From Bacteroidales bacterium (GTDB lineage Bacteria > Bacteroidota > Bacteroidia > Bacteroidales > F082), in assembly GCA_024710405.1 (NCBI GenBank), contig JANJUV010000022.1, forward strand, positions 48,454-112,453: a stretch of DNA of 64,000 bases, given 5' to 3'. The notes under the pieces are model-generated. The model saw nothing but the letters and a program-made list of their open reading frames with translations. It did no database searches and was not told the origin of the DNA. Below, piece after piece: positions 36,313 to 61,585 of this stretch. Numbering within the stretch: the first letter of the stretch is position 1; every line of letters starts with the position of its first letter. Both the position numbers and the translations under genes were made by a program.

Positions 36313-36434
36313 AACGGTCACATGTATGAAACGTTGGGGATTGCGGGCTTCGTCCCTGTCTGACGTTGCAAAAGCTGATGCGGGCAAAATGCATCACGCA
36401 ACCACATAGACACCAATGTTTTATACCTGATGCT
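36313..36434. repeat. attC-like site S1 (lower boundary of the array)
   Basis: It begins ACAACGGTCA and shares TTGGGGATTGCGGGC and AAAAGCTGATGCGGG with site S20. The right GTT core is degraded (GATGCTAACACC). Confidence 0.7.
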
Positions 36435-36462
36435 AACACCCGGCATTATATATCTTTCATAT

Positions 36463-37632
36463 TTAGTAATTCATTCCAAAAGCCCATAATGGTATTACGT
36501 TTCGATACCCAAATTCTATATCATCTTTCACCAAAAATGATTTTCCGTCATGATCAATTTGGGATTGCTGTTTATTCTTTCCGCCAATCTCAAACGTATA
36601 ATTATCAATTATGAAATCAGCTTTGGCAGATGAAATAACTTCATTATTTAGTCGCATTTGATTGAAAAAGAAGGTTTCCCGGATGTTTCCAATATTTGAA
36701 TTTTCTCCAACCAAATTAAAAATGATATTAGTATTATCCAGATAAACTTTATCAACTTTTCCTAATCCACGAATACCGCTTGTTTCATGACGCAACTGAC
36801 CAATAAGCCCAGCTTTCTCCATATATGAAAAATAGTCGTCTAAGGAATTCCGGCTTACGCCTATTATTTCAGAAATTTTTGTGAAATTTGGCTTAAAAGG
36901 TACACTTTCAGCTATAATCGAAAGTAAACGCTTTAATTTTCGGCTTGTACCGACATTGAGATTTGCATATTGCGGAATATCTGTTTCCAATGTTTGCACA
37001 ATTATTTGGCCTAAACGTAAATCCAATTCATTTTCAAGTCCAAAAGGATAATATCCTCGTTTTAAATAGTCTTTAAACAGCGGCAAAGGATGCATAATGT
37101 CACTTAGCTTGACTTCGTTATTAACTATTTGCTCCAACGAATATACTTCTATGCCATAATTATGAAACAACTTTAAATATTCGCGAAATGAGAGTCCATG
37201 TAATTTATAGATTATTGCACGACGGCTTAAATCTGCTGACCCTGCAAGGATATCAAGCACAGAAGAACCGGTGAAAATAATTTTTAAGGAAGGAAACGAA
37301 TCATAGATGTTCTTCAATTCCCGCGACCAGTCTGAATACTTATGAATTTCATCAATAAACAGATACTCACCTGCATTTTTGTAAAAGTCATCAGCTAAAT
37401 CAAACAGGTTGTTTTCACCAAAATAAATGTCGTCTGCTGAAACGTATAAGGCTTTTTTACTGTCTAAATTCTCTTTGATGTATTGTAGAATCATAGTAGT
37501 TTTACCAACTCCACGTGCTCCAACTATCCCAATCATCCGACTGTTCCATGCAACTTTATCATATAAATATCGCTTATAGTCTGAAGTCGTATTCTGTAAA
37601 AGCGTCTCAAATTTCTGGTAAAGTTTATTCAT
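36463..37632 (-). CDS. AAA ATPase with DUF4143 (AAA_14 type)
   Basis: A 389-residue cytoplasmic ATPase. Walker A is GARGVGKTT near residue 37-45, Walker B is YLFIDEIHK near residue 90, and sensor-like FTGSSVLDIL follows. The C-terminal part has the DUF4143 winged-helix and nuclease-like fold (FEIGGKNKQQSQI, with a conserved Glu and Lys). Such proteins are common in Bacteroidetes genomes with unknown roles. It is complete and may be the last unit in array order. Confidence 0.85.
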   Translation of the reverse strand: MNKLYQKFETLLQNTTSDYKRYLYDKVAWNSRMIGIVGARGVGKTTMILQYIKENLDSKKALYVSADDIYFGENNLFDLADDFYKNAGEYLFIDEIHKYSDWSRELKNIYDSFPSLKIIFTGSSVLDILAGSADLSRRAIIYKLHGLSFREYLKLFHNYGIEVYSLEQIVNNEVKLSDIMHPLPLFKDYLKRGYYPFGLENELDLRLGQIIVQTLETDIPQYANLNVGTSRKLKRLLSIIAESVPFKPNFTKISEIIGVSRNSLDDYFSYMEKAGLIGQLRHETSGIRGLGKVDKVYLDNTNIIFNLVGENSNIGNIRETFFFNQMRLNNEVISSAKADFIIDNYTFEIGGKNKQQSQIDHDGKSFLVKDDIEFGYRNVIPLWAFGMNY

Positions 37633-37741
37633 TTCTTTAATGTGCTATTTTTGCAAAGATACATAAAGCACAACAAAATAAACAATAAATTCCATAATTG
37701 CTCATTAAGTTGTGCGGACGTCTGTTTTTATGCTGGGCGTT

Positions 37742-37850
37742 AACGTTTTGCCGCTTGCCGCAGTGGGGGATTTCGGAGCACAAAACTGTCATATCGATAC
37801 AAAATCTGAAGCGATTTACCATTTGTGAATACGCTATCTAATCGGCAATT
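37742..37850. repeat. attC-like site S2, right half worn
   Basis: The left half (AACGTTTTGCCGCTTGCCGC then AGTGGGGGATTTCGGAGC) is nearly identical to site S23. The right arm is no longer recognisable. Confidence 0.7.
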
Positions 37851-37889
37851 TATAACAGAGCGAATGAGCAGATGATATTCTGTCATCCG

Positions 37890-38504
37890 CTACTCAGTGT
37901 CTTGTTTAAAACTCCAATTTATCAAAGGCAATTTTCGTTTCTGGTTTATATTCCACAATCCGATTTGAATTCCTTTGAGTTTCATTGATCTGTTGAATAG
38001 TCCCGCCTGAACTCCTTTAACATAATAGGCCTCATTCAATAGCGCTATCATAATTCCGTTATGTTTTTGAGAAAAGTTCCCCAGAAACGAGGTCGATATA
38101 CCGTTAACCTGAAAATTGATATTTCCAATCAGTCCTATATTAAATCCATTTGTTATACAGTCACAAACTGTCCCGGATGCAGAAATGCTCAAACCGTTAA
38201 TCACTTCCGAAATGGGTTCTTCAGACAATTTTATAAATTCACTTTCATCCTGAGCAACCGGGCTTTGCGGAATTAATGGTATGGCAATGCCTGCCCCAAT
38301 TATTTCAACTTTAATACCGTTTGTATTTGTAAATCTTGGCGCTGCTTTAACAGTACCTATTCCGACCGATACTCCGTGAATGTTAATATTCTTCTGGTGA
38401 TATGTCCAGATCGGGAAATAGTTCTTTCTCTTTTCAACCTGTCCGTATGAACTGATTGTCAAAATCAAAAAAAGAATGGTCATTATAGTTATTATGTGTC
38501 TCAT
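37890..38504 (-). CDS. Exported repeat protein of LA_2272-like type
   Basis: A 204-residue protein with a signal peptide (MRHIITIMTILFLILTISSY followed by GQ). The body has short repeats around NGxxxGLxxN (NGFNIGLIGNINFQVNGIST, KGVQAGLFNRSMKLKGIQIG) as in LA_2272-type surface repeat proteins. The start at 38504 is preferred to 38519. Probably a surface or periplasmic beta-solenoid; function unknown. Confidence 0.6.
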   Translation of the reverse strand: MRHIITIMTILFLILTISSYGQVEKRKNYFPIWTYHQKNINIHGVSVGIGTVKAAPRFTNTNGIKVEIIGAGIAIPLIPQSPVAQDESEFIKLSEEPISEVINGLSISASGTVCDCITNGFNIGLIGNINFQVNGISTSFLGNFSQKHNGIMIALLNEAYYVKGVQAGLFNRSMKLKGIQIGLWNINQKRKLPLINWSFKQDTE

Positions 38505-38514
38505 TACAATACCT

Positions 38515-38590
38515 GCCATCGTTTGATTGTATGATTAGTGGCATATTGCGCGGCACTTTCCCTGCCATTACTCATACAAAAGGTTAACCG
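38515..38590. repeat. Short attC-like site S3
   Basis: Arms TTGTATGATTAGTGGCA and TGCCATTACTCATACAA pair over 15 of 17 positions, followed by GTTAACCG at 38583. The loop is only about 20 bases. The left AAC core is replaced by CATCG. Confidence 0.55.
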
Positions 38591-41420: not shown

Positions 41421-41549
41421 AACGGTTCTCAGCTATACGCATTCAGGGATTCTTACCACTGAAACCGCCTCTGGCGGAAACTGAACTTTAAACTTAGCAC
41501 TTTCCTGTCCTACGAAGCACAAAACCCCTGCTTGCGGATAGGTGATGTT
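41421..41549. repeat. attC-like site S6
   Basis: 129 bases; left end CGGCACAAC matches GTTGTGC at the lower end of its unit. Right end GTTATCCG. It contains CGAAGCACAAAA in the loop. Confidence 0.7.
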
Positions 41550-41565
41550 ATCCGTTCGGTTTTCA

Positions 41566-42924
41566 TTAAAGTTTACTGAATTTTGCAGTTTTCAAATTTC
41601 CATTTTCATTTAATATAATAATGTAAGTTCCGTTTGATAAATTAGAAATGTCTATTACGTAATCCTTTGAATTAATTTGTTTAGTTAAAAGTTTTTGACC
41701 AAGTGTATTGTAAAGCGTTACGTCTGATTCATTATTTAATTTGAAATTAATAAAATCTTTTGCTGGATTTGGATAAAAATTTATACTTTGATTTGTTGCA
41801 ATTTGTTCAGAAATACTTATAACAGTAGAAGAATTCCAATATACATTTGTTTTATCTACAAATCCTTGTATAATAATATCTTTTAGTCCATCTCCATTAA
41901 AATCATCTATTATACAATCTGCAATATATTCACCACCCAAAATTTGGGTTTGGACAAATGTATTATTCCCGTCATTTCTATAAACAATATTGAAAATATT
42001 CGGCAAACCACCAGCTTGACTGCCCACTATTAGTAAGTCTTGGTCTCCATCGTTATCCAAATCAGCAAAGGCATTTTGCCCTGCAAAAGTTTGTTGAATA
42101 TTAGTAGCAATTTGTGTAAAAACTCCTGTTCCATTATTGATATATAATAAATTTTGTGTATTACCATTGATAAGTAAATCTAAATCTCCATCGTTATCTG
42201 TGTCAGCCACTTCAATACCTTCAGCAGTAATTGCCGGGAATGTTGTATTTGTGTTTAAAGTATATACACCAGAACCATTATTTTGATATAATTTAATGGT
42301 ATTTGAACCAGAAATAATAACATCTTGATCTCCATCGTTTTCTATATCAATAATTTGTACAATTCCATCTACTGGAGTAAAAACGGAGTTTCCTTGTGGC
42401 GTGAAAACCGCGTTTCCATTATTAAGATAAATTCCTGCAACAGTAGAAGTAGTAATAACCAAGTCTTGGTCACCATCATTGTCCACGTCTGCAATTGCAG
42501 CTCCTTTAATAAATACAGGTAAATTATTAGGTACTTGAGTAAAATTACCCGTGCCATCATTTCTATAAATATTTGCAAATTTTTGGGCAAGTTCATCCTG
42601 TCCAGAGAAAAACAAGTCTAAATCTCCATCACCATCTAAATCTTTAAAAAATGCTTGGCCATTTCCTGAACGAGGAAAATTATGAGTTACCTCTGTGAAA
42701 TTTCCAGTTCCATCGTTTTTATAAAGTTTTGTCCATATTTGGGGAGTCAATCCAGTCATGAACAAGTCTAAATCGCCATCTCCATCTATATCACCACTTG
42801 CAAATGTCCCGCCATAAGCTTCCATTATGTTAGGCTGTGGATTTGCTAAAGTGAAATTTAATGTTTGAGTGAAGCCATTTGTACAAATTAGTATAATGGT
42901 CTGAATTAATAAAATTTGTCTCAT
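41566..42924 (-). CDS. FG-GAP/VCBS-repeat protein with type IX secretion signal
   Basis: A 452-residue exported protein. After the signal peptide there are about seven FG-GAP/VCBS repeats with Ca-binding loops of the form DxDGDGDLDL and DNDGDQDL. The last 75 residues form the type IX secretion C-terminal domain (FYPNPAKDFINF, then LYNTLGQKL, ISNLSNGTYIIIL). It is secreted or surface-bound. Repeats form a beta-propeller for adhesion or substrate binding; no enzyme domain. Confidence 0.88.
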   Translation of the reverse strand: MRQILLIQTIILICTNGFTQTLNFTLANPQPNIMEAYGGTFASGDIDGDGDLDLFMTGLTPQIWTKLYKNDGTGNFTEVTHNFPRSGNGQAFFKDLDGDGDLDLFFSGQDELAQKFANIYRNDGTGNFTQVPNNLPVFIKGAAIADVDNDGDQDLVITTSTVAGIYLNNGNAVFTPQGNSVFTPVDGIVQIIDIENDGDQDVIISGSNTIKLYQNNGSGVYTLNTNTTFPAITAEGIEVADTDNDGDLDLLINGNTQNLLYINNGTGVFTQIATNIQQTFAGQNAFADLDNDGDQDLLIVGSQAGGLPNIFNIVYRNDGNNTFVQTQILGGEYIADCIIDDFNGDGLKDIIIQGFVDKTNVYWNSSTVISISEQIATNQSINFYPNPAKDFINFKLNNESDVTLYNTLGQKLLTKQINSKDYVIDISNLSNGTYIIILNENGNLKTAKFSKL

Positions 42925-42959
42925 GTTTTTTGTGTTAAATTGTTATTTTAGTTTATTGA

Positions 42960-43090
42960 ATTCTCACACGTTTCGCCAAACTGACGGCTAAGGGTTTGCA
43001 GTGGAATTTCTTTCAGTCATAGTTGTCAATTTAAACTGTCAATACACGGGTTTAATATTTTATAGAACAAACAGTGTATACTTTATTCTT
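42960..43090. repeat. Strongly worn attC-like site S7
   Basis: CACACGTTTCGCC, TTTGCAGTGGAATTTC and a weak TTTAAACTGTC recall the site family, but no clear GTT/AAC pair was found. Confidence 0.3.
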
Positions 43091-43126
43091 TATTTTTAAT
43101 TTGTAAAATTCTTGGTCCCTTTAGTT

Positions 43127-43459
43127 TTAAAATTTAAATACTTTTCCATTTTCTAATAGTTTTTTTGCTTCATCCCAGGATGGTAGAGTATCAGTATCTA
43201 TAGTGATTGTTCTTATTTCTTTTGCAATGTCTTTGCTTTTTTTCATTGCATCTAAATGTGCACCACTTTTAGCAAAATCTTTTAGTTCACTCTCATTATT
43301 CCAAAGAGTCATTGTATAATGTGTAGTCCACACACCCCTTTTTTTAAAGTCTTTATAGCTAGTCGCTTTAAGTTGCCTTATAATTTTTAACGCATTTGCT
43401 GATAAAGCAAAAAACTTAAGAGGACCTTTTAGTTCAATTGATGTAATTGTCGCTTTCAT
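43127..43459 (-). CDS. Small ABM/spheroidene-monooxygenase-like protein
   Basis: A 110-residue cytoplasmic protein with the ferredoxin-like alpha/beta pattern seen in DUF3291 and CrtA-like proteins (FKKRGVWTTHYTMTLWNNES, then LKDFAKSGAHLDAMK). These small dimers often bind heme or act on small organics. The exact function is unknown. Confidence 0.55.
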   Translation of the reverse strand: MKATITSIELKGPLKFFALSANALKIIRQLKATSYKDFKKRGVWTTHYTMTLWNNESELKDFAKSGAHLDAMKKSKDIAKEIRTITIDTDTLPSWDEAKKLLENGKVFKF

Positions 43460-43513
43460 ATTTATTTGTCAGTTTTATATTATTGTTTACTGTGTCGTCA
43501 AATCATTGCAAGT

Positions 43514-43638
43514 AACGTTTCGCATATGCCCCGTAGCCGTATCTGCGGAGCTACAAATCTAACCACAATTGCCGCCGCCTGCGCGGGCTACAAACGCCTA
43601 AATACTTGCGAAACGGCTATGGGGTATGATGCGGTGTT
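43514..43638. repeat. attC-like site S8
   Basis: 125 bases. The loop contains GCGGAGCTACAAA and GCGGGCTACAAA. Right end GTTATCGGC; the far end of the same unit is GCCGACG (44894), missing three bases of the expected complement. Confidence 0.75.
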
Positions 43639-44406: not shown

Positions 44407-44407
44407 A

Positions 44408-44809: not shown

Positions 44810-44896
44810 AAGTATTCAATTTGAATTTATTTCTATTATTCTGATTAATGTTCCTTGTTTCACTTCATTATCCAGTTGTGAAACTTCTGCTTGCCG

Positions 44897-45023
44897 ACGT
44901 TCGGTTTGGCGCTTGGCGCAATGGCGGATTTCGGAGCACAAAACTGTCAATACACCACAAAAGTTGATGCGAGGTAGAATGTTCAATTAACCACTTCACC
45001 CGCCATTGAGCCAAACGCCTGTT
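44897..45023. repeat. attC-like site S9
   Basis: Arms GGCGCTTGGCGCAATGGCGG and CCGCCATTGAGCCAAACGCC pair over 18 of 20 positions. Right end GTTAGCGGTA. The loop has GGAGCACAAAACTGTC. Confidence 0.85.
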
Positions 45024-45909
45024 AGCGGTAGTTTTTTGTTTCAATAAGCTTTCCATCTGAATATATTTCTTCCGTTTCTAAATTACCTGCATCGTCCCAA
45101 TATTTCCACGTTCCGTTTTTTTGCCCTAATCTATAGATTCCTGTTGCATATAGTTGACCGTTTCTATGCCAATAACTAGCCTCTCCATCCATTTTACCTT
45201 CATTGCGGAATTCAACTTGTCTTGTTGTTCCATTTTCATACCAATCTTCCCACTTATTTACCTGTTTATCATTAATATATAATCCTCTTGTGCGAATTTG
45301 TCCGTTTATGAAGTAAAATGTATGTTCTCCTTCTTTTTTACCATCAACATAATGAAATTCTGATTGTAAACTTCCATCGCGATAATACCATAACCATTTC
45401 CCATTTCTTTCTCCATTTAGGTATGTACCTTGAACTTGTAATATACCATTATCGTAATACGAAAGATAAACACCTGTTCCATTTATGATAAGTTGCTTAT
45501 CATCAGGTGTCCAATAATTAATTATAGAACATTTGGAAGAAAACAATCTAATATTTTCAATCTCACATTTACTTTCTGATTCTTTTACTCCATTTTCATA
45601 CCACTTCTCATTTAGTCCTACTAAACATCCATCTTGATAAAATCCTCTCTGTTGAATATTCCCATTTGGCCAATATGAAATTGTCTCTCCATTTCTTTTT
45701 CCATCTCTATAATGCAATTTCAATCCAATTTGTTCTGGATTAGTCTCGCAATAGGCAATCCAAATCCCATCGGGCAATGAATCTGGTCTAATAAATAGTC
45801 CACTCTTTGGAAATAATTGGTTAAAATAATAAGTGGTTTCACTATTTATCTGACCTTGTAAAAACAAAGAAGTCAATATGCTAAATTTTAAAAGTAGTAC
45901 TATTCTCAT
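45022..45909 (-). CDS. Exported MORN-variant repeat protein
   Basis: A 295-residue protein with a signal peptide (to LQGQ) and about ten MORN-type repeats (GxxxGxWKYWxxxGxL pattern, for example YLNGERNGKWLWYYRDGSLQ). Such proteins are widespread in Bacteroidetes; some are toxin-immunity or surface proteins. The cassette core sequence supplies the stop: the TAA (45024-45022) lies inside the GTTA core of site S9. The unit's ends match perfectly over ten bases (GTTAGCGGTA and TACCGCTAAC). Confidence 0.8.
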   Translation of the reverse strand: MRIVLLLKFSILTSLFLQGQINSETTYYFNQLFPKSGLFIRPDSLPDGIWIAYCETNPEQIGLKLHYRDGKRNGETISYWPNGNIQQRGFYQDGCLVGLNEKWYENGVKESESKCEIENIRLFSSKCSIINYWTPDDKQLIINGTGVYLSYYDNGILQVQGTYLNGERNGKWLWYYRDGSLQSEFHYVDGKKEGEHTFYFINGQIRTRGLYINDKQVNKWEDWYENGTTRQVEFRNEGKMDGEASYWHRNGQLYATGIYRLGQKNGTWKYWDDAGNLETEEIYSDGKLIETKNYR

Positions 45910-45928
45910 TTTCCTTAAAATTACCGCT

Positions 45929-46052
45929 AACGCTTTGGCGCTTGGCGCAGTGGCGGATTACGAAGCACAAAACTGTCTACCAGCACTGAACTTGATACGA
46001 AGCACAAAGCTCCAAGTTTGCACGTCACCCCGCCTGACGCAAAACCGGTGTT
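45929..46052. repeat. attC-like site S10 (chimeric arms)
   Basis: 124 bases. The left half resembles S9 (GGCGCTTGGCGCAGTGGCGG); the right half resembles S11 and S18 (CCCGCCTGACGCAAAACCGG), so the arms no longer match well. Loop: GAAGCACAAAACTGTC and GAAGCACAAAGC. Confidence 0.85.
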
Positions 46053-51809: not shown

Positions 51810-51931
51810 AACGGTTGAGGCTATGTGCAGTAAGGGATTGCGGGCTACTTTTTTGTCCACCGATACCGAAGTTTAAGCGGGGCAGTTGGCTTGAATTACC
51901 AATGAAACCCTTATTGCATATAGCCTTTGTT
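51810..51931. repeat. attC-like site S15
   Basis: Arms AGGCTATGTGCAGTAAGGG and CCCTTATTGCATATAGCCT pair with two G.T wobbles. Left end GCTCGCTAAC, right end GTTACCACC. Confidence 0.9.
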
Positions 51932-51940
51932 ACCACCATG

Positions 51941-52549: not shown

Positions 52550-52577
52550 TCTCTGTATTGTCTTTATAATTGGTGGT

Positions 52578-52700
52578 AACGGTAGTGTATATGGTTTGTG
52601 GCGGTTTTCATAGCAATAATTTTCAATTTAAGATAAATTTATTTTAATACAAAGTCTTTCATATACTACACTTTACCCGCAATAAACTATATACGATGTT
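52578..52700. repeat. attC-like site S16
   Basis: 123 bases. Arms TGTATATGGTTTGTGGCGG and CCGCAATAAACTATATACG pair imperfectly. The loop is AT-rich. Right end GTTATGCAC. Confidence 0.85.
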
Positions 52701-52707
52701 ATGCACT

Positions 52708-53892
52708 TTATTTTTTTATTATCTTTTCAATCTTGTGAATTCTTTGATTTAAGTCGGTAATTTTCAATAGGTAAATACCATTTTTGTAATTGTTGCAATC
52801 TACTTTGTATGTTTTATCTGATATCGTTTTTTTATCCATCAATTTTCCTTCACAATTGAATATTTCCAGATAATAAAAGTCTTTGAGATTTCCGTCATAA
52901 CAAATTGAAAAACTTCTGCTGAATGGATTGGGATGTATATTTATTTCAGGTTCTTTTGGTATGTCTTCAATTGTGGTAGGCAAAACAACAGTAATATCAG
53001 AGTAGAGAATATCTGTTAAAAATCCAATATCATAATTTTTAATCGTAATAATGCAAGGGAAAAAACCAGTTGTACTAGGCAAACCTGTAAGTATGCCTGT
53101 TGTTTCATCAAATTCAAAATCTTCTGGGATCACATCTCCAATCAGAGCAAATGAGTCAACATTATTTGTGTCAGATATTTGCAACTGAAATTCATAAGAT
53201 TCATTTAAATAGGCGGTGTCATAATATTCAGAGGATATTTTCGGATAAAACTCTTGGATAAAGCAGGAATTGTAAATCGTGTCATAGTATAAAAGGGTGT
53301 CATTTTTGGAACAACAAAGTAAATCCATGCCACCGCCAGCAGTGGGAGCACCACCAAAACCACTATAAAGTAAGCCATATTTGCTACCTATTCCTTCAAT
53401 CCAGATATCAGAAATACCATACATATCTGGAGTCGAAAAGTAGAATTGGTTTCTTGAAATACCATTGATGATAACAGGATTAACACTGTCACAAATTAAC
53501 AGTACATCTTCAAAATCGGCATAATAATTATCAATTACAACACTATCACCTACCGCTAAATCAAAATCGTAAATTAGACCTATTTCCTCTGGATCCCATG
53601 CTGAGAAGTATATTTTTTTATTAATCGTATCTTCTCTTAAGTAACCGACTTGATCCCAGTCTTGTTGAAGCGAATCTTGTGCTTCATAAACCTTGAAAAA
53701 TGTGCTGTCATTAAATATAACTTCTCCTACAATTTTATTTGACTTGGTGCCACCACAGTGTGCAATACTTCATGACCAGAAACCATAATAAACAGTGTTC
53801 CATTTTTTCGTTGAGTCGGCAATTTGGTATTGACTTTGGCTAAAAGTCAGAAAAGAAATTACAAGTAAGATTGTTGTTAACAGTGTTCTCAT
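52708..53892 (-). pseudogene. Type IX-secreted protein gene with one in-frame stop
   Basis: A 394-codon frame from ATG 53892 (signal peptide TILLVISFLTFSQS) to 52708 with a single in-frame TGA at codon 41 (53772-53770). Downstream the reading frame continues without fault to a type IX C-terminal domain (HPNPFSRSF, IFNCEGKLM, NNYKNGIYLLKI). The rest has strand-rich repeats (YSGFGGAPTAGGG). The stop may be a recent mutation or a reading error; otherwise the gene is intact. Unit ends GTTATGCAC and GTGCATAAC match. Confidence 0.75.
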
Positions 53893-53912
53893 TTTTTCTC
53901 AATATTGTGCAT

Positions 53913-54036
53913 AACGGTCGGCTATACCTGCAGTTGCGGATTACGGGCTGCTAAACTATCCCCCGATACGAAAGATAACGCGATGCAGAAACCCCGAAAC
54001 CTGCACTGCACCCGCAATTGTCAGGTATAGCATGTT
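53913..54036. repeat. attC-like site S17
   Basis: Arms GCTATACCTGCAGTTGCGG and CCGCAATTGTCAGGTATAGC pair with one bulge. Left end GTGCATAAC, right end GTTGGCAACT. Confidence 0.88.
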
Positions 54037-54057
54037 GGCAACTGTGTTTCTTTCATT

Positions 54058-54564
54058 TTATTCGTTTTTTTTCTTGTCCCATGAATTTCTTTCGTAAACA
54101 CCCGGAATTGCATGATCTCCTTCTTCAAAGTCAAATGATAAATGTTTTATTCCAGTTAATTCAGTAAAGTAAAATGTTGTTGAAATCATAAAACTCTCTG
54201 CTCCCGTTGTACCCATTTGTTGTGTCAATACTCCACTGTTTGGAATGGATATGAACGCTGTATCATTTGAAGTTCGAATAAATTTGATCTGCACTCTCGG
54301 CCAAGACTTATTTATTATTTTCTCTAAGGTCTCTCCTGTTAATGTGTCTCTGTCAACTGGTCTTAATTGTGTTACCTTAATTTCTTCTATCTGTTGGTCA
54401 TAGTCGTATTCCCAAATTGCTCCTGATGGGTCATAAACCAATGAACTCTCTGTTTCGAATTCACTCTTCTCAACTGTGTCATCTGTCACGGTATCTTCCT
54501 GTCGTGTCGGATTACAGCTAATTAACAAAAAAGTCAGTCCAAAGGAAATCAGTATAGTTCTCAT
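54058..54564 (-). CDS. Hypothetical lipoprotein
   Basis: A 168-residue protein with a lipobox (FLLISC). A Glu/Thr-rich segment (DTVTDDTVEKSEFETESS) follows as a linker. The C-terminal domain is unknown. Unit ends GTTGGCAACT and AGTTGCCAAC. Confidence 0.6.
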   Translation of the reverse strand: MRTILISFGLTFLLISCNPTRQEDTVTDDTVEKSEFETESSLVYDPSGAIWEYDYDQQIEEIKVTQLRPVDRDTLTGETLEKIINKSWPRVQIKFIRTSNDTAFISIPNSGVLTQQMGTTGAESFMISTTFYFTELTGIKHLSFDFEEGDHAIPGVYERNSWDKKKNE

Positions 54565-54599
54565 AAATTGTTAGTATCTGGCGATTTAACATAGTTGCC

Positions 54600-54684
54600 A
54601 ACGGTTTCGGGCTTTGCGTTCGGGCGGAAAGTCCCCTGGCACATCAGGTTTGCACTTCACCCCGCCTGACGCAAAACCCGTGTT
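54600..54684. repeat. Short attC-like site S18
   Basis: 85 bases. Left AACGGTTTCGGGCTTTGCG and right CCCGCCTGACGCAAAACCCG (as in S11), with about 40 bases of the loop missing. Right end GTTGGCAGCA. Confidence 0.8.
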
Positions 54685-54734
54685 GGCAGCATGTGCTATT
54701 ATTTGACCGAAGTCGTAAAGTCTGAAATTTGTCG

Positions 54735-55850
54735 TTATTGTTCCCATTGAGGTGAGCTTCCCAATTTTTTATCTGTCTTAATTATCTCAATTACAATTTT
54801 ATCTTTTAGCTTGTCCTGGACAGTAGGGAAATAAATCAACTGTTCTTTAGCCATGATGTCCAAGTTCTGCATTATCCAGTTCATACAGAATTGAAAATGT
54901 TTGTCGTTACTCTTAGGTATATTTAAAACAACTTTACTAGTTGGAACATCTAAAATCTTTAAGAAGATTGAAATGTCTATCCGAAATGCTCCATGACTTT
55001 CAAAGTTAAATTCAAATTTTGCTTCATTCTTCGGTGCTTTGGTTTCTTGAAATTCTATGAAGTCAGGTTTAATTGTATTGATAAACTCTTTTACAGCATT
55101 TACAAAAGGAGTGAGATTAATATTTACCAATTCATCAAACACTTTATGAAAGTGTTGCTGGTTTTTTGTTTTTGTTGAACGCAAATGAATTATGTCGTTC
55201 CGCAATGAGTTTAGGTTGAGCAATTTGTCGTAAACCTTTTGATGTGATTTCTGAAAATCAATCTTGGTAAGTTGTGGAACAACGCCACTTAGCTTTTCTT
55301 TAAATAATATATATCGCTCTGTTTGTTCCTTATTATACTCCTTTGTTTGTTTTAAAAACTTGTCGGACTTTTCTCCTTCGTATTCTTGTTTGTAAACAAA
55401 TTCTTCTGGCATTAAGTAGTTAATGAATGCTTCAACAGTTGAATGAAGAAATATTATTGTGCTTATTTTGTATTGTAGGTGCCAGTTGTATAAATAACCA
55501 TTTACAAAATTTAAAACTCTGTCTTGACCTTTCTGAAATGTTATGTTATGTCTTGTCTTTTTAGCAAACTGATAGTTAGCAAACGCAAGCGAAAAATATA
55601 GTTGAATTGGGTCAGGGAATTGTGATGCAAAAAATTGGTCATTCTCAATTATTGGAATGAATGTAAAAAGTTCTTTCTTGTCAGGGACAACTGCAAGAAA
55701 ATGTCCAGAACCACTTTGCTTAATATTTTTTATGACATCTTTAATTGTTTTCTGAGGGTCAGTTTCAGGATGAGTATTTTTCTCAACCGAATCAATCACT
55801 TGGTCTGTCACTTTGAAAACTCCAAAAGGTTTGACTTTAACTATTTTCAT
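54735..55850 (-). CDS. Hypothetical protein with HEPN-like motif
   Basis: A 371-residue soluble protein. The helical middle contains LNSLRNDIIHLRSTK, a RX4H motif like that of HEPN ribonucleases, in a domain that looks like an extended HEPN or Cthe_2314-type helical bundle. This suggests, without proof, an RNA-cleaving toxin or antiphage factor. Ends: GTTGGCAGCA and TGCTGCCAAC. Confidence 0.55.
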   Translation of the reverse strand: MKIVKVKPFGVFKVTDQVIDSVEKNTHPETDPQKTIKDVIKNIKQSGSGHFLAVVPDKKELFTFIPIIENDQFFASQFPDPIQLYFSLAFANYQFAKKTRHNITFQKGQDRVLNFVNGYLYNWHLQYKISTIIFLHSTVEAFINYLMPEEFVYKQEYEGEKSDKFLKQTKEYNKEQTERYILFKEKLSGVVPQLTKIDFQKSHQKVYDKLLNLNSLRNDIIHLRSTKTKNQQHFHKVFDELVNINLTPFVNAVKEFINTIKPDFIEFQETKAPKNEAKFEFNFESHGAFRIDISIFLKILDVPTSKVVLNIPKSNDKHFQFCMNWIMQNLDIMAKEQLIYFPTVQDKLKDKIVIEIIKTDKKLGSSPQWEQ

Positions 55851-55899
55851 TTTATGTGGTCAGTTTCAAGTTAGCACTGTCGTTCAAAGCATTGCTGCC

Positions 55900-56024
55900 A
55901 ACGGTTGGCGGTATGAAACGTTGGGGAGTTCGGAGCTACTTTACTATCAAGGTACAACGGACTTTGATGCGAGAACCGAGGCTCGAATAACCACTTCGCC
56001 CCCAATGTTTTATGACCGCGTGTT
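55900..56024. repeat. attC-like site S19
   Basis: Arms GCGGTATGAAACGTTGGGG and CCCCAATGTTTTATGACCGC pair with one bulge and two G.T wobbles. Right end GTTAGCAAAA. Confidence 0.9.
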
Positions 56025-56032
56025 AGCAAAAG

Positions 56033-56686
56033 TTATTTTTTGAAAATCATTGAATTTATTGATTCTAAAAGAATTTCCTTTTGTTCATCTGAAATATATG
56101 ATATTATTACATTGAAACTAAATCCTTTTAAAACAGTCGAATAATAAATCTGCTTAATTTCAAGTCCCATGTAGTTCAAACGAGCATCCATTTTATAAAA
56201 ATCAGACTCATTTATCTTTTCTTTGTCAAATTTTTCTGATAAATAATCATATTTAAATTGTCCTTGCTGAATCATTCTTCTGGCTTGAAATAAATAATCA
56301 CTTCCATTTTTTATCCCAGGTGCATTTTTTACACTCTCAGCAACAATCATGATATTTGGATTATACTCAACTGCAGAACCTAACTCATATTGGAATACTG
56401 CTAATAAATTCGCCGTATTTATCTCTGATGCTTTAATTACTGCTTGCATATTTTCGTCATCTCCCGCTACCAATTTTTTTCCAGTATTTGCAAGATTTTC
56501 AGTTTGTTCTTTTGATTGCACAATCCAATCAATTGGTAATTTAATCTTAAAGTCAAAATAATCATTTTGATAGTTCCCATTTTCTACGTGTCCATAATCA
56601 AAATTATCAGGTTGCCCTTTACTATTACAACTTGATGACATAATGACTATGAGAATAAGGCCGAAAGTTTTAATTGAAATTTTCAT
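56033..56686 (-). CDS. Hypothetical lipoprotein
   Basis: A 217-residue protein with a lipobox (IMSSSC). It resembles PsbP/DUF1795-like stress proteins with a conserved YFDFKIKLPIDWIVQSKEQT start, but the match is only a pattern. The stop codon TAA lies 9 bases beyond the GTT core. Unit ends GTTAGCAAAA and TTTTGCTAAC. Confidence 0.6.
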   Translation of the reverse strand: MKISIKTFGLILIVIMSSSCNSKGQPDNFDYGHVENGNYQNDYFDFKIKLPIDWIVQSKEQTENLANTGKKLVAGDDENMQAVIKASEINTANLLAVFQYELGSAVEYNPNIMIVAESVKNAPGIKNGSDYLFQARRMIQQGQFKYDYLSEKFDKEKINESDFYKMDARLNYMGLEIKQIYYSTVLKGFSFNVIISYISDEQKEILLESINSMIFKK

Positions 56687-56744
56687 ATTCTAAATTTTTA
56701 TTGATTTGTTTCTTGATTTTGCAATGTCGTCAATAATTTTTGCT

Positions 56745-56867
56745 AACGGTCACATATATGAAATGTTGGGGATTGCGGGCGTCGTCATTGTCTGCCGTTA
56801 CAAAAGCTGATGCGGGGCAGAAAGTTTCGAGTAACCACCTAACCCCCAATATTTTATATATGATGTT
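56745..56867. repeat. attC-like site S20
   Basis: Arms CATATATGAAATGTTGGGG and CCCCAATATTTTATATATG pair with two G.T wobbles. Right end GTTGGGGTGC. The left and loop sequence resemble S1. Confidence 0.9.
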
Positions 56868-56882
56868 GGGGTGCGTAATTTT

Positions 56883-57479
56883 TCATCTTGCATATTTAAA
56901 ATTGTCTAATAATTGACTAATCTTATATTCGTTAGATTTGTAAATCTCACCAATAGTCGTTGAAGTAATCACTTGAATTGTAGCATCTTTATCAATTGCA
57001 ATTACTTTGTCGTAAATCTCTCTTGATGTTGCTCTTATTTGGTATCCTTCGCTAACAACTTCACCATATTCTAATTTCTTAGGAAATGGCACTTTGTTAA
57101 TTGTGTCAGTCATAGCAAACGTGTCTAAATTCCCTTCGAATGGAACAGACAGTTTAAAAAATGGAGCGTTAAAAAATCTATTTTCTTTAGTCAGGTTAGT
57201 GATTGTTACACCAAAACTGATTCCTGTCACAGCACCAGGAGCTATTAGAAAATTTAAACTCAAATAAACGTTTGCACCTGAATCAATTTGAATTTCGTTT
57301 GTGTTTTTGTTTTCCATAAGTTCTAAAATTGTCTTTGGTAATGAACTTAGATTTTGTTGAAAGTCAATAAAAAACTTTCGTATTTCTTCTGGATTATTCA
57401 TGTTTATAGTAATCTCAGAATTATCAGAATCCTGAATCACAACATTGCCATTTCCGTCAATTTCAGCCTTATTAATCAT
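56883..57479 (-). CDS. Hypothetical protein with GNGNVVIQDSDNS motif
   Basis: A 198-residue soluble protein. Its first 25 residues (GNGNVVIQDSDNSEITINMN) match the beta-hairpin-like motif of the small gene upstream and of effector-associated modules in bacterial conflict proteins. The remainder is a beta-rich domain without a family I know. Its ATG overlaps the stop of the upstream gene by four bases (ATGA), showing that both form one cassette. Confidence 0.6.
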   Translation of the reverse strand: MINKAEIDGNGNVVIQDSDNSEITINMNNPEEIRKFFIDFQQNLSSLPKTILELMENKNTNEIQIDSGANVYLSLNFLIAPGAVTGISFGVTITNLTKENRFFNAPFFKLSVPFEGNLDTFAMTDTINKVPFPKKLEYGEVVSEGYQIRATSREIYDKVIAIDKDATIQVITSTTIGEIYKSNEYKISQLLDNFKYAR

Positions 57480-57679
57480 TTTGCAAAGAAGTTTAAAATG
57501 TTATCCCAACCAATTATTATAGTAGCAATCAATCCCAAAACTGCAACAATTATCCCAATCCATGTATAAATCTGTCTATCTCCTAAATTCTTATTTCTAT
57601 TCTGGATGTCAACTTTTGAATTCTTAATTCCTTGAACAACAATATTCTTGTCTCCTTTTATTCTAGTCTCATTTTTCAT
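57476..57679 (-). CDS. Small membrane protein with the same GDKNIVVQG motif
   Basis: A 67-residue protein (start at 57679, MKNETRIKG; the frame is open to 57718). The first part reads KGDKNIVVQGIKNSKVDIQN, the second is a single helix (IYTWIGIIVAVLGLIATIII). It is probably a membrane partner of the protein encoded downstream. Unit ends GTTGGGGTGC and GCACCCCAAC match over ten bases. Confidence 0.6.
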   Translation of the reverse strand: MKNETRIKGDKNIVVQGIKNSKVDIQNRNKNLGDRQIYTWIGIIVAVLGLIATIIIGWDNILNFFAK

Positions 57680-57706
57680 GGGTTCTCGGTTTTTATTATG
57701 CACCCC

Positions 57707-57828
57707 AACGTTTGACAATATGGCCAGTAAGGGATTGCGGGCGATTTCCTATCACGGTACACGAAAAGTTGAAGCGGGCTACAAACCTTCGCATACCACT
57801 GAAACCCTTATTGGCTATATTGTGTGTT
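57707..57828. repeat. attC-like site S21
   Basis: Arms ACAATATGGCCAGTAAGGG and CCCTTATTGGCTATATTGT pair with two G.T wobbles. Left end GCACCCCAAC, right end GTTGTGCCCA. Confidence 0.92.
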
Positions 57829-57844
57829 GTGCCCAGTATTGCAT

Positions 57845-58528
57845 TCATAATCTGTAGTTTAATCCAATTCCAAGATTCAAATAGCTATAAGGTAAATTTT
57901 TGTCCGTATTAGTAAATTTATATATTAAAGTTCCGCCAAGTTTCACACTCATTCTTAATCTATGTCCTCCAAATCGTATAAATCCAACTGGCTCAAACAA
58001 AATACTTTCGTCATGATAAATCTTAAATGGTCCCGTTTCTGAAGTCCAGTCATAATAGTTCTTGTCTGTTAGATTTGAATGAAGGTAACCGGCCTTTATT
58101 CCAAATCCAGTCTCAAAGTTTGAAGAATTACTTGAAATTTTTCCGAAATTTGCTTGTCCAAAATATAGTTGATAATCACCTAATAGATTTCCTGGATTCG
58201 CATCTTTGTAAGCGTTTCCATATCCATAGCCAAATCCGCCATAAAGTTCAAAAATCTTGTTGTCTCCCTTATTCTTATATAATCCAGTCGCTGCTTGAAA
58301 ATAATACCTATTATCTGCTCCAATACTCCCAAATCCTTGAATTGCAATCTTATCAGTCAGTCCGTATGAAACGGTCGCATTTGCAGAAGGAACAATCGAA
58401 ATACCTGCATCAATTCTCAAATCGTTTTTTTCGCTAATCAACGGAATATCTGTTGTCATAGGATGATAAACTATACAACTTGACATCATCAACGAAATCA
58501 AGAATCCAAATATTATTAATCTATTTTT
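57845..58528 (-). CDS. Outer-membrane beta-barrel lipoprotein
   Basis: A 227-residue protein with a lipobox (LMMSSC; start at 58528, MKNRLI) and a strand-rich body ending in a short aromatic tail (LGIGLNYRL). It is probably an eight-stranded barrel. Function unknown. Unit ends GTTGTGCCCA and TGGGCACAAC. Confidence 0.7.
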   Translation of the reverse strand, partial: KNRLIIFGFLISLMMSSCIVYHPMTTDIPLISEKNDLRIDAGISIVPSANATVSYGLTDKIAIQGFGSIGADNRYYFQAATGLYKNKGDNKIFELYGGFGYGYGNAYKDANPGNLLGDYQLYFGQANFGKISSNSSNFETGFGIKAGYLHSNLTDKNYYDWTSETGPFKIYHDESILFEPVGFIRFGGHRLRMSVKLGGTLIYKFTNTDKNLPYSYLNLGIGLNYRL

Positions 58529-58561
58529 CATAGTTTGTAGGGTTTTTCTCATATTGGGCAC

Positions 58562-58685
58562 AACGGTTGGCAATAAGAAACGTAGGGCATTTCGAAGCTC
58601 CTACCTATCAAGTTACCGAGCCGTTTATTAAATGTTATATCGTTCAAATTTAGTACTTTCTGCCCTATGTTTTTTATTGCGTGTT
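58562..58685. repeat. attC-like site S22
   Basis: Arms GCAATAAGAAACGTAGGGCA and TGCCCTATGTTTTTTATTGC pair with two G.T wobbles. Left end TGGGCACAAC, right end GTTGGCAAAC. Confidence 0.92.
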
Positions 58686-58693
58686 GGCAAACG

Positions 58694-59251
58694 TTATTCT
58701 TTCATAAGTTTATTTTTAAATTGATGAAATCCTGATGAAAGTCCAATTAACATGATTTGATCAGTATTAGGATAGTCTTTAATTCCTGGAACAACAACGA
58801 CAGTTGCCCCGAAAGTCGTATTGAACTTACTATGAAATACAAGTTTGCCTGTCTTGGTGGAGACAAGTTTGTACTCAACTTTGCAATCCCTTGTTTGATT
58901 CATTACTTTTAGTAATTCAATTTTTGCAGTCAAAACGTAGTCAGCATTTATATCATGTGCAACTGCATTTTTCATTTCATTCTCGATGATGTTAAATTCT
59001 GGAAGTTTGTCCTCAGATTTTTCAATTATGAAGTTGAAATCTTTTAATTCCTGCTGGGCAACAAGTGTCAATATTTCTTGAACTTCATTTTCCGCCTGAT
59101 TAACGCTTATCAATGTCGGTTGAGACACTATTATTTTCGTATTTTCTATCAGTTTAGTATTCTCATCAAGATAAAGTGTCTTACTGCCTAAGGATGCACA
59201 AGAATATATTCCGGCTATCATTATTGCAAAAAGAAGTGTCTTCCGTTTCAT
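58694..59251 (-). CDS. Hypothetical lipoprotein
   Basis: A 185-residue protein with a lipobox (AGIYSC). The remainder (KLIENTKIIVSQPTLISVNQ and a C-terminal GIKDYPNTDQIMLIGLSSG) has a mixed alpha/beta pattern with no family I recognise. Unit ends GTTGGCAAAC and GTTTGCCAAC. Confidence 0.6.
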   Translation of the reverse strand: MKRKTLLFAIMIAGIYSCASLGSKTLYLDENTKLIENTKIIVSQPTLISVNQAENEVQEILTLVAQQELKDFNFIIEKSEDKLPEFNIIENEMKNAVAHDINADYVLTAKIELLKVMNQTRDCKVEYKLVSTKTGKLVFHSKFNTTFGATVVVVPGIKDYPNTDQIMLIGLSSGFHQFKNKLMKE

Positions 59252-59277
59252 ATATTGTTATTTTTTTAATGTTTGCC

Positions 59278-59401
59278 AACGTTTTGCCGCTTGCCGCAGT
59301 GGGGGATTTCGGAGCACAAAACTGTCAACCAAGCACAAACTTTGATAGAAGCACTGCACTTGATTTAACCACGTCAGCCCCCATTGCGGCAAACGGCTGT
59401 T
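59278..59401. repeat. attC-like site S23
   Basis: Arms GCCGCTTGCCGCAGTGGGGG and CCCCCATTGCGGCAAACGGC pair over 18 of 20. Loop has GGAGCACAAAACTGTC and AGAAGCACTGC. Right end GTTGGTGGCA. Confidence 0.92.
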
Positions 59402-59418
59402 GGTGGCAGTTATTCTTA

Positions 59419-60237
59419 TCATTTTGTCACTCTTTTTAGTCTGAATGCAACATCTGTTGGTTTTCCACCTGCAAAGTCTCCATCTTCATATATTTCTTCA
59501 ACATTTCTTAATACTAGGTCGTCATTATCAAAAGTCCAATTGTAGTAGATAGCATCTCCGTTTTTGTCGTAAAAATAAATCAAGTCCATTTGCGGAATCA
59601 TTTCCCAAAAATCAACTGCAATTGAATAAGTCTGAAATCCATTAACTCCCTTTAAATCGTAAAAGTCAGTAAAGTCGTCTTTCTTTATTAGGTTAGCTGT
59701 CAACTCAATTTGTAACGTGTCATTTTTATAAACACCTTTCAAAATATTTGAAACAAAATGCTTGCTGGGGCTTAATATCTTATTTTCTGTCAAGCTGAAA
59801 TGGTAAGTTCTTGGGTCTGCTTTATGAGCATACGTTGGGTCCATATATTCTTTAAAAGTCAATTTGGAAAAGTCGTCACTAAATTTTAACTCCCAATGTT
59901 GAATCTCATCACCTGCCCAATATGTTTTTTCATCCTTTTTGATTAACGGCAAAATTGTCTGCTCATGATAGCCGATAAAATGAATGCTGTCAGGCTTATT
60001 TGTGTCGAAAGTTATTTGGTAGGCAAAACTTGCACATGTGTACGAATATTTGAAAACTGACTTGTGAAAAATTGTCGAGTCTATATATGCAGAGTAATAC
60101 CAATTCCCACGTGGTATTTTAGAGCTTATTATTTCAGTGGTTTCTGTAGAAGTCTGTTCGTCATTTTGTTTTTTGTTCGCTTGATTGGAACAGGAAAACA
60201 AAGCGAGTATTAATATGCAAATTGCTATCTGTTTCAT
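59419..60237 (-). CDS. Hypothetical lipoprotein
   Basis: A 272-residue protein with a lipobox (LALFSC; start 60237, MKQIAI) and a polar linker (NKKQNDEQTSTETTE). The beta-rich domain is unknown to me. Unit ends GTTGGTGGCA and TGCCACCAAC match over ten bases. Confidence 0.6.
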   Translation of the reverse strand: MKQIAICILILALFSCSNQANKKQNDEQTSTETTEIISSKIPRGNWYYSAYIDSTIFHKSVFKYSYTCASFAYQITFDTNKPDSIHFIGYHEQTILPLIKKDEKTYWAGDEIQHWELKFSDDFSKLTFKEYMDPTYAHKADPRTYHFSLTENKILSPSKHFVSNILKGVYKNDTLQIELTANLIKKDDFTDFYDLKGVNGFQTYSIAVDFWEMIPQMDLIYFYDKNGDAIYYNWTFDNDDLVLRNVEEIYEDGDFAGGKPTDVAFRLKRVTK

Positions 60238-60259
60238 GTCGTCTGTTATAATTGCCACC

Positions 60260-60383
60260 AACGGTTCGCAGCTACCCGAAGGTGGCGATTTCGAAGCACT
60301 TCACTGTCAACCAAACACAAACTTTGATAGAAGCACAAAGCTTGATTTAACCACTGAACCGCCACTTTTGGGTAGGTGCTGTT
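60260..60383. repeat. attC-like site S24
   Basis: Arms GCAGCTACCCGAAGGTGGCG and CGCCACTTTTGGGTAGGTGC pair over 17 of 20, with two G.T positions. Left end TGCCACCAAC, right end GTTGTGCCTA. Confidence 0.92.
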
Positions 60384-60387
60384 GTGC

Positions 60388-60768
60388 CTAGTTTTTTTCA
60401 TTTTTCACTTCTAATTTCATTGTCTTTATTGGTTCTGATTGGTTTCTATAATAGCCAATTACTTCGTTTTTCTCTGGTCTGTCAACTGAATATTCAATCA
60501 AAATTTTGTCTCCGATTTTTTGAAGTCCTTCTCTTTGTCCTGCTTTGAATTTGTCAGTATAAATACTGTCTTTGGCTGCAAATTTATAAGTCACTAATTG
60601 AAGTCGATATCCTTTTACGCCATAAGTCCACTCTGTATTCGTAACTGTCCCTTTTATTTTTTCTGTCTTTTCGAAAAGGAAAAATGACGGTAACTCAAAG
60701 TGGTTGAAGCCCAAATAGAAAACTAACCCAATGAAAAGTAGAGCAAATATGTACGGTGTAGTTTTCAC
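60388..60768 (-). CDS. Small membrane protein, DUF3592-like
   Basis: A 126-residue protein with one N-terminal helix (YIFALLFIGLVFYLGF) and a small beta domain (KGTVTNTEWTYGVKGYRLQL, then GDKILIEYSVDRPEKNEV) like DUF3592. Function unknown. Its start directly abuts the stop of the upstream gene, so the pair forms one two-gene cassette. Confidence 0.6.
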   Translation of the reverse strand: MKTTPYIFALLFIGLVFYLGFNHFELPSFFLFEKTEKIKGTVTNTEWTYGVKGYRLQLVTYKFAAKDSIYTDKFKAGQREGLQKIGDKILIEYSVDRPEKNEVIGYYRNQSEPIKTMKLEVKNEKN

Positions 60769-61443
60769 TTAATATATGGTCCCTATCATTCTTTGTTTCA
60801 ATCCATTTTTGTCAAACACCCATACCAATTGATAATAGCCTGCTCCGTCACTATTTGCCTGGTACACAATAAATGAGTCTCCGTTTTGATAAATTGATAA
60901 TACATTTTCACATTCGTAAATGTCAGAGTAAAATACTTCGTGAATTTCAATTTCTTTTCCGACAATTAAAACTTTGATATCGTCAACTTGGGTCTTCGGA
61001 AAATTGCCGTCAGTTCCCCATACAGGTCGGCCGTCAATAGCCGTGATCCATTTTCCGTCTTGTTTGTCGATTATTCGATTGGTGGAATCGAAGTCACTTA
61101 GTTCATATTCAAAAGTGAAGTCATTACCTGTATATACCTGAAGTATTTCCAATGGAAGAAGTCGCGACTTATGAATGAATCCAACTATGTAGCTCGGTTC
61201 GCTCTTTTCAAGGCTATAGTCGTTTTTCGGAAGGTAAATTGAAATCCATTCTTGTTCTTGGTCGGCTTCTTCATAGTCATACCAAAACACTTCATTTTCA
61301 TAAACCCTTTGAATTATCTCTGATTTTCCGTCAGGCGATTTTCTCACGTTTGTCCAACCGTCAGTGTCTTGGATAGTCGCGACTTGTCCAAATGAGATTT
61401 GGATAGTCAAAACGGTCAATATAATTGTTAGGACGATTTTCAT
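60769..61443 (-). CDS. Exported protein with bacterial SH3-like domain
   Basis: A 224-residue protein with a signal peptide (to QISFGQ) and an SH3b-like domain (DTDGWTNVRKSPDGKSEIIQ). The C-terminal domain is unknown. It is the first gene of the array in gene order. Unit ends GTTGTGCCTA and TAGGCACAAC. Confidence 0.65.
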   Translation of the reverse strand: MKIVLTIILTVLTIQISFGQVATIQDTDGWTNVRKSPDGKSEIIQRVYENEVFWYDYEEADQEQEWISIYLPKNDYSLEKSEPSYIVGFIHKSRLLPLEILQVYTGNDFTFEYELSDFDSTNRIIDKQDGKWITAIDGRPVWGTDGNFPKTQVDDIKVLIVGKEIEIHEVFYSDIYECENVLSIYQNGDSFIVYQANSDGAGYYQLVWVFDKNGLKQRMIGTIY

Positions 61444-61460
61444 TTTTTCAAATTAGGCAC

Positions 61461-61585
61461 AACGTTTTGGCGGTATGTTTTTGTTGCCGATTTCGAAGCA
61501 ATTCACTGTCAATTTACACGAAAGTTTATTAGTTGCAGAAGCACTGAAAACCGCACTATCTCGGCAATAAAATATACCGCATGTT
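61461..61585. repeat. attC-like site S25 (upper boundary of the array)
   Basis: Arms GCGGTATGTTTTTGTTGCCG and CGGCAATAAAATATACCGC pair with one bulge and two G.T wobbles. Left end TAGGCACAAC; right end GTTATAGC has no partner in the window. Confidence 0.9.

What the first reader, a model, noticed from the sequence alone, without database searches (positions are those of the whole stretch)
36313..61585. Integron-like cassette array of about 25 units in a Bacteroidetes genome, with cassette-specific complementary ends
Seen: a run of minus-strand genes in one- or two-gene units separated by palindromes mostly 122-125 bases long from AAC to GTT. For unit after unit the lower end (GTT plus seven bases) is the exact reverse complement of that unit's own upper end, for example GTTAGCGGTA/TACCGCTAAC, GTTACCAGCC/GGCTGGTAAC, GTTGGGGTGC/GCACCCCAAC, GTTGTGCCTA/TAGGCACAAC. 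Ends of one palindrome that belong to different units usually differ. Known: in integrons the inverse core site of a cassette is complementary to the cassette's own start, because both come from one circular molecule. Inference: these are integron cassettes, or a parallel system using the same circular-excision logic.
Basis: partly seen in the sequence, partly recalled or inferred. Interest (0 to 1): 0.95.

Follow-up and report, generated by a model that had tools for sequence, protein, structure and literature searches.

The report
Integron-like cassette system without IntI
This stretch of a Bacteroidota genome is an array of gene cassettes whose matching ends follow the same rule as integron cassettes; in related genomes such arrays lie next to a recombinase that lacks the helix integrons rely on, so this is likely a second gene-capture system, and its sites occur in about half of the Bacteroidota genomes sampled.

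Summary
In 18 units bounded by 19 palindromic sites (window 41421-61585) the seven bases after GTT match the unit's own other end 106 of 126 times; no shuffle exceeded 75. The rule recurs in relatives (315 of 371; shuffle maximum 180) and in a Vibrio superintegron used as control (308 of 343).
No intact cassette recombinase was found in the window's genome. In relatives the arrays follow a tyrosine recombinase ("HARP-YR") that lacks IntI's I2 helix region and often carries HARP-like N-terminal modules. The far end of the first cassette predicts where that cassette begins: 25 of 32 starts fall within 400 bp after the recombinase stop (about 0.3 expected). Two near-identical recombinase loci carry different cassettes from exactly that point on.
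Across 198 Bacteroidota genomes, sites occur in 109. HARP-YR goes with them (64 of 70 carriers, 45 of 128 others); canonical IntI does not (26 of 57, 83 of 141). The sites also lack the constant one-sided extra bases of the Vibrio sites.
Excision, circles and single-strand recombination are inferred. Nine searches of the held papers showed no description; preprints are not held.

The parts
36313..36434 (+). decayed site (66 bits); right end GCTAAC instead of GTT
36432..37744 (-). decayed unit with AAA_14/DUF4143 ATPase gene; ends match 8 of 10
37742..37850 (+). half-decayed site (28.7 bits)
38518..38585 (+). decayed site (36.2 bits)
41421..41549 (+). weak site (31.2 bits)
41554..43516 (-). unit with FG-GAP repeat gene and DUF3291 gene; ends do not match (1/7)
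43514..43638 (+). site, 56.4 bits
43636..44899 (-). unit with DUF5131 and glyoxalase genes; ends do not match (0/7)
44896..45023 (+). site (AAC changed to GAC)
45021..45931 (-). cassette, MORN-repeat gene; ends 7/7
45929..46052 (+). site
46050..46616 (-). cassette; ends 4/7
46614..46736 (+). site
46734..47908 (-). cassette, RsgA-like GTPase; ends 5/7
47906..48029 (+). site
48027..48984 (-). cassette, unknown gene found in 1 of 100 genomes (its own); ends 6/7
48982..49104 (+). site, best model score (116 bits)
49102..50072 (-). cassette; ends 7/7
50070..50193 (+). site
50191..51812 (-). cassette, rhomboid-domain gene; ends 7/7
51810..51931 (+). site
51929..52580 (-). cassette; ends 7/7
52578..52700 (+). 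site
52698..53915 (-). cassette, gene with C-terminal sorting domain; its reading frame covers only part of the unit; ends 6/7
53913..54036 (+). site
54034..54602 (-). cassette; ends 7/7
54600..54684 (+). short site, 85 nt
54682..55902 (-). cassette; ends 7/7
55900..56024 (+). site
56022..56747 (-). cassette; ends 7/7
56745..56867 (+). site
56865..57709 (-). two-gene cassette; ends 7/7
57707..57828 (+). site
57826..58564 (-). cassette; ends 7/7
58562..58685 (+). site
58683..59280 (-). cassette; ends 7/7
59278..59401 (+). site
59399..60262 (-). cassette; ends 7/7
60260..60383 (+). site
60381..61463 (-). two-gene cassette; ends 7/7
61461..61585 (+). upstream-most site; a histidine-kinase gene follows, and no start matching its outer end was found in the window

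Best explanation
The window holds an array of 18 units separated by palindromic sites of about 124 nt, most of which are cassettes that are likely excised as circles and re-inserted at an attI-like spot by a tyrosine recombinase ("HARP-YR"), which in related genomes lies directly upstream of such arrays. Shown: each cassette's two ends match, as if once joined in one circle; the start of the first cassette, predicted from its far end, lies just after the recombinase stop; in one compared pair of relatives the cassettes differ exactly from that point. Inferred: recombination between two flanking sites frees a circle whose single site has a continuous outer stem (9-10 bp, a T.G wobble, about 3 more bp on the strand opposite to the genes); that strand folds into a hairpin; HARP-like modules, a fold resembling domains that act on forked DNA (function recalled), help to recognise the hairpin in place of IntI's I2 helix and the extra-helical bases. 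In the window's own genome the two recognisable recombinase copies are damaged and lie on other contigs, so this array is probably static now or moved only in trans.
For: End rule in the window and in 53 other distinct adjacent-site pairs, 315 of 371 against a shuffle maximum of 180. Same rule in a canonical Vibrio array, 308 of 343. Predicted first-cassette start within 400 bp of the recombinase stop in 25 of 32 loci, about 0.3 expected. G016 and G029: recombinase region 96.7% identical, then different cassettes from GTT on. In L096 (G000) against L078 (G001) the 91% identity stops at that kind of GTT. G004 carries a unit of about 519 bp four times (90-93% identical), once after another cassette. 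Further recombinase loci have sites in 12 of 40, Xer loci in 0 of 20. Named loci: sites in 20 of 80. 198 genomes: HARP-YR against sites, odds 19.7, p 2e-15; IntI against sites, odds 0.6, p 0.11; carriers whose match includes the module: 37 of 39 against 72 of 159. Stem covariation 0.809 against at most 0.136 when slid. Residues taken as the catalytic Arg, Lys, His, Arg, His and Tyr (assignment recalled) are invariant in 14 members. Closest fold in the PDB is IntI 2A3V.
Against: No recombination, circle or strand choice was observed. No intact HARP-YR was found in the window's 97% complete genome. Of the 40 further loci 28 show no site, though in 24 of the 40 the contig ends within 1 kb. 45 of 128 genomes without a strong HARP-YR match have sites, and 6 of 70 with one have none. 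In 4 of 12 further and 3 of 20 named loci with sites the layout differs. The repeated G004 units themselves match only 4 of 7 at their ends. The HARP assignment is weak: 3 of 24 members at E<=0.1, best PDB match E 0.24; two linked recombinases (L090, L221) show no module in frame, and about half of the listed phylum matches (43 of 87, counted by eye) begin after the module. By sequence profile an archaeal Xer (4A8E, 239.7 bits) scores slightly above IntI 2A3V (229.3). The wobble bias does not prove which strand is used, since it runs the other way in VCR sites.
Confidence: 0.85

Rival explanations
1. These are ordinary integron cassettes (a CALIN) whose canonical IntI is elsewhere or lost, and IntI moves them in trans.
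For: Same end rule and similar site length as Vibrio VCR sites. Canonical IntI over its cut-off in 57 of 198 Bacteroidota genomes. Integrons in Bacteroidota are mentioned in print (passages of PMC9024848, PMC9668308 and PMC8618304).
Against: Sites do not track IntI (26 of 57 carriers, 83 of 141 non-carriers); in the window's class 39 of 49 genomes have sites and 1 has IntI, without sites. 0 of 61 tabulated site places lay within 30 kb of a listed IntI, 32 near a listed HARP-YR (the 61 lean to contigs with a HARP-YR, so only a hint). 0 of 16 window starts fit GTTRRRY. No constant bulges. The model finds nothing in the Vibrio array.
Confidence: 0.07
2. HARP-YR cassettes recombine as double-stranded DNA, like Xer/dif; the palindrome is only a pair of inverted binding sites.
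For: The recombinase lacks I2 and resembles XerA as well as IntI. Many stems have no bulge (67 of 130).
Against: G.T wobbles outnumber A.C mismatches 248 to 81 on one strand and one pair is G.U in 43 of 56 sites, which points to folding of one strand. The module resembles HARP and XPB domains.
Confidence: 0.25
3. The palindromes are a dispersed repeat family, or transcription terminators, between genes that do not move.
For: Some sites stand alone (window 20700; C7, C8, C15), and near-identical sites flank units without reported similarity.
Against: A repeat family does not explain cassette-specific ends, the recombinase junction or cassette differences at the same junction.
Confidence: 0.02

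Closest known systems
Sedentary chromosomal integron (Vibrio VCR superintegron, compared directly in Vibrio sp. HDW18)
   Same: Arrays of mostly one-gene units mostly in one direction, palindromic sites of about 120 nt, end matching within each cassette, array beginning beside a tyrosine recombinase
   Different: There: annotated IntI divergent from the cassettes; three one-sided extra bases in 51 of 57 sites, spacers 3/3 in 54 of 57, end matching fading after base 11. Here: no I2 region, recombinase mostly upstream and co-directional, no bulge in 67 of 130 sites, spacers mostly 5 against 1-2 nt, matching resumes at bases 12-14
CALIN (cluster of attC sites without integrase)
   Same: The window array has no neighbouring recombinase
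   Different: The cassette starts do not follow the canonical core consensus
Xer recombinases (XerC/D, archaeal XerA)
   Same: Core and catalytic domains; NCBIfam XerA model scores about as high as the integron model
   Different: Nine Bacteroidota Xer sequences form their own group (100/97) in the tree; Xer loci have no sites nearby (0 of 20)
HARP domain (SMARCAL1) and XPB N-terminal domain
   Same: One recombinase passes the Pfam HARP cut-off (29.0 against 25 bits); top Foldseek matches of the module model are XPB and HARP
   Different: Sequence similarity is marginal in most members (3 of 24); fused to a tyrosine recombinase, often repeated

Membership tests
Integron | IntI tyrosine recombinase with the I2 helix insertion | tested here: not met
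   HARP-YR profile matches 2A3V at 6-180 and 240-319, about 60 residues in between absent; TIGR02249 211 bits in L188 against cut-off 265; no full IntI in the window's genome. PMC7790495 (passages) ties I2 to single-strand recombination and cassette capture.
Integron | Cassette ends complementary within each cassette | tested here: met
   Vibrio control
Integron | attC core boxes RYYYAAC / GTTRRRY (consensus recalled) | tested here: not met
   0 of 16 window starts; in 43 relatives' pairs only the purine at base 4 is constant among bases 4-7
Integron | Extra-helical bases on one side of the attC stem | tested here: not met
   no bulge in 67 of 130 sites and no constant pattern; VCR: three one-sided bases in 51 of 57
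Integron | attI-like junction next to the integrase gene | tested here: met
   relatives only: 25 of 32 loci within 400 bp of the stop; not seen in the window
Integron | Cassette gain and loss | tested here: met
   one pair of near-identical loci with different cassettes; repeated unit in G004
Integron | Recombination of the folded bottom strand | not testable with these tools
   only compositional hints
Integron | Pc promoter driving the array | not tested
   -
CALIN | At least two canonical attC sites without nearby intI | tested here: inconclusive
   no recombinase next to the array, but sites not canonical; IntegronFinder's attC model was not available here
Xer recombinase | Groups with XerC/XerD | tested here: not met
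   Xer rows apart, 100/97
HARP domain (PF07443) | Pfam gathering score | tested here: inconclusive
   passed in L171; 3 of 24 in A5 at E<=0.1; fold rank 2-3, probability 0.77

The most novel reading that the evidence does not exclude
Bacteroidota carry a phylum-wide second gene-cassette capture system, separate from IntI integrons and sometimes alongside them, in which recombinases with HARP-like modules recombine folded single-stranded sites without the I2 helix and without extra-helical bases: reading a hairpin evolved twice.
Probability: 0.55. Interest if true: 0.97.

Novelty: new variant of a known kind. Interest (0 to 1): 0.92.

Why it matters
Integrons are the textbook platform for capturing genes, and the I2 helix is held to be the innovation that made it possible (PMC7790495, passages). 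A system with the same cassette rule but no I2 and no constant extra-helical bases tests that idea directly. It may also explain much accessory gene content in Bacteroidota: sites in 109 of 198 genomes (lower bound, only 18 candidates scored per genome), including at least 51 in Flavobacterium enshiense and 42 in Alkalitalea saponilacus. The end-matching measurement, here made for both systems, bears on the open question of how new cassettes arise.

Tried and rejected
Finding the sites by stem score alone did not separate them from a reversed control; end matching and the covariance model did. The repeat finder saw only 4 inverted pairs in 34000-64000. Rfam has no match at its gathering scores in the window. 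MFE folding of the two strands is a weak test: plus strand lower in 14 of 19. A cassette gene (48053-48949) was found only in its own genome among 100, so transfer of a whole cassette between genomes was not traced. Five loci thought to carry IntI gave no usable attC control; the Vibrio array did. PADLOC: 10 of the window's genes scanned, three with candidate-family or weak hits. HARP was first suspected from recalled motifs, then tested. The truncated recombinase locus on G000:C2 shows a junction GTT but no model match.

Rows dropped or chosen: duplicate site pairs (55 to 53; 54 to 49); per-position counts use the 43 of 53 pairs with at least 5 of 7. L205 (same contig as L083) was dropped. 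In one search, 130 sites kept both ends. The 40 further recombinase loci were taken from the list in roughly its order, after loci sharing a contig with listed sites had already been fetched; at least seven hits in between were passed over, among them G098:C215, G032:C117, G051:C69, G051:C23, G021:C79 and G049:C13. The 24-of-40 contig-end count rests on edges typed and is approximate. Co-location used 61 typed site places out of a longer, cut list. Eight of the ten Bacteroidota genomes were picked because their loci had sites. The Fisher tests ignore kinship.
Full report
OBSERVATION. The window is G000:C10:48454-112453 of a 24-contig, 97% complete genome. Nineteen sites AAC...GTT between 41421 and 61585 separate 18 units with minus-strand genes. 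The seven bases after GTT at a unit's lower end match the reverse complement of the same unit's upper end in 106 of 126 positions; over non-own pairings the mean is 2.4 of 7, and 20,000 permutations never exceeded 75. The two ends of one palindrome match in 51 of 133. Base 11 never matches (0 of 18), bases 13 and 14 match in 14 of 18 (about 6 expected), base 15 and later are at chance.

RELATIVES. A covariance model of 18 sites finds 28 matches at E<=1 in the genome, including other contigs, and matches at E<=1e-4 in 81 of 100 genomes, the window's own included. In 53 distinct adjacent pairs from fetched stretches and named loci, end matching is 315 of 371 (26 pairs 7/7, 17 pairs 6/7; shuffle maximum 180). 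In the 43 pairs with at least 5 of 7, bases 4-9 match 42-43 times, base 10 28 times, base 11 never (start always A, end G in 35), bases 12-14 39, 37 and 33 times (19, 13 and 13 expected), then chance.

CANONICAL CONTROL. A Vibrio array next to an annotated integron integrase gives 308 of 343 over 49 distinct pairs (maximum of 2,000 shuffles 185). There matching runs to bases 10-11 and is at chance by base 13. So the end rule itself is an integron property; the constant mismatch at base 11 plus the second block is what differs in the Bacteroidota sites.

LINKAGE. Forty further recombinase hits (chosen as told under Tried and rejected): sites in 12 loci; twenty Xer loci (340 kb): none. In about 24 of the 40 the contig ends within 1 kb downstream of the recombinase match. 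A separate scan of named genomes gave 80 loci; 20, all Bacteroidota by record title, have sites, and 50 of 53 sites lie on the strand that makes cassettes co-directional with the recombinase. Whole genomes: sites in 10 of 10 Bacteroidota (eight picked for their sites; Rufibacter marginal, E 2e-5) and 0 of 14 others.

JUNCTION. For each recombinase in the fetched stretches that is followed within 5 kb by a same-direction site, the first cassette's start was predicted from its far end. In 25 of 32 it lies within 400 bp of the recombinase stop with at most one mismatch in seven, about 0.26 expected. G016:C39 and G029:C9 are 96.7% identical through recombinase and downstream stretch and differ from the GTT on, with different first cassettes. 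G000:C2 and G001 part at the same kind of GTT. G004, one contig, carries a unit of about 519 bp four times (90-93%), although these copies match only 4 of 7 at their ends.

PHYLUM. In 198 genomes drawn evenly, sites at E<=1e-6 occur in 109, canonical IntI over cut-off in 57, HARP-YR-profile matches at E<=1e-70 in 70. HARP-YR and sites: 64 of 70 against 45 of 128, odds 19.7, p 2e-15; among IntI-negative genomes odds 23.9. IntI and sites: 26 of 57 against 83 of 141, odds 0.6, p 0.11. Matches that include the module: sites in 37 of 39 carriers; matches without it: 27 of 31; neither: 45 of 128.

SITE STRUCTURE. In 56 sites of the first stretches the stem is 94.6% paired, with a covariation score of 0.809 against at most 0.136 for slid versions (alignment fitted to the model). 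Of 130 distinct sites 67 have no bulge; spacers are mostly 5 nt against 1-2 nt. Of 57 VCR sites 51 have three extra bases on one side and 54 have 3/3 spacers. On the strand opposite to the genes G.T outnumbers A.C 248 to 81 here, but 9 to 31 in VCR.

MECHANISM. Shown: matched ends, a junction beside the recombinase, cassette differences at that junction. Inferred: circles, folding of one strand, recognition by the modules, immobility of the window array.

LITERATURE. PMC9024848 (passages) reports one complete integron in a Bacteroidetes species, Salinibacter ruber M1, besides Chlorobi and Ignavibacteriae; PMC9668308 (passages) and PMC8618304 (passage) list Bacteroidota among phyla with integrons; PMC8138268 (passages) notes that the integrase insertion is not fully conserved in its integron-like subgroup; PMC7790495 (passages) gives the role of I2; PMC8352920 (passages) says attC pairing often extends beyond the boxes. 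Nine searches (listings) showed no description of this system. Preprints and most subscription papers are not held.

Noticed in passing
window 20700-20822; G000 C7:165182, C8:18738, C15:460416: Solitary sites far from the array.
   Followed up: no
L097, L131, L132, L136, L137: Short recombinases of about 260-308 aa beside sites in another layout; L097's shows no N-terminal module.
   Followed up: partly
L094 (G074), L199: Sites on the other side, recombinase divergent from the cassettes, as in canonical integrons.
   Followed up: partly
L096 (G000:C2) 6773-7092: The truncated recombinase follows a tRNA-Asn gene and a partial repeat of it, as after insertion or deletion at a tRNA.
   Followed up: partly
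L095 4275-4396 and window 44902-45023: Sites 97.5% identical, no similarity reported between the adjoining units.
   Followed up: no
window 36463-37632 and 43684-44439: Matches to PADLOC candidate families PDC-S01 and PDC-M30B/M41B.
   Followed up: no
198 Bacteroidota genomes: Canonical IntI over the NCBIfam cut-off in 57 of 198, 56 of them outside the window's class.
   Followed up: partly
L188 (Flavobacterium enshiense): A second length class of sites, 156-159 nt.
   Followed up: no
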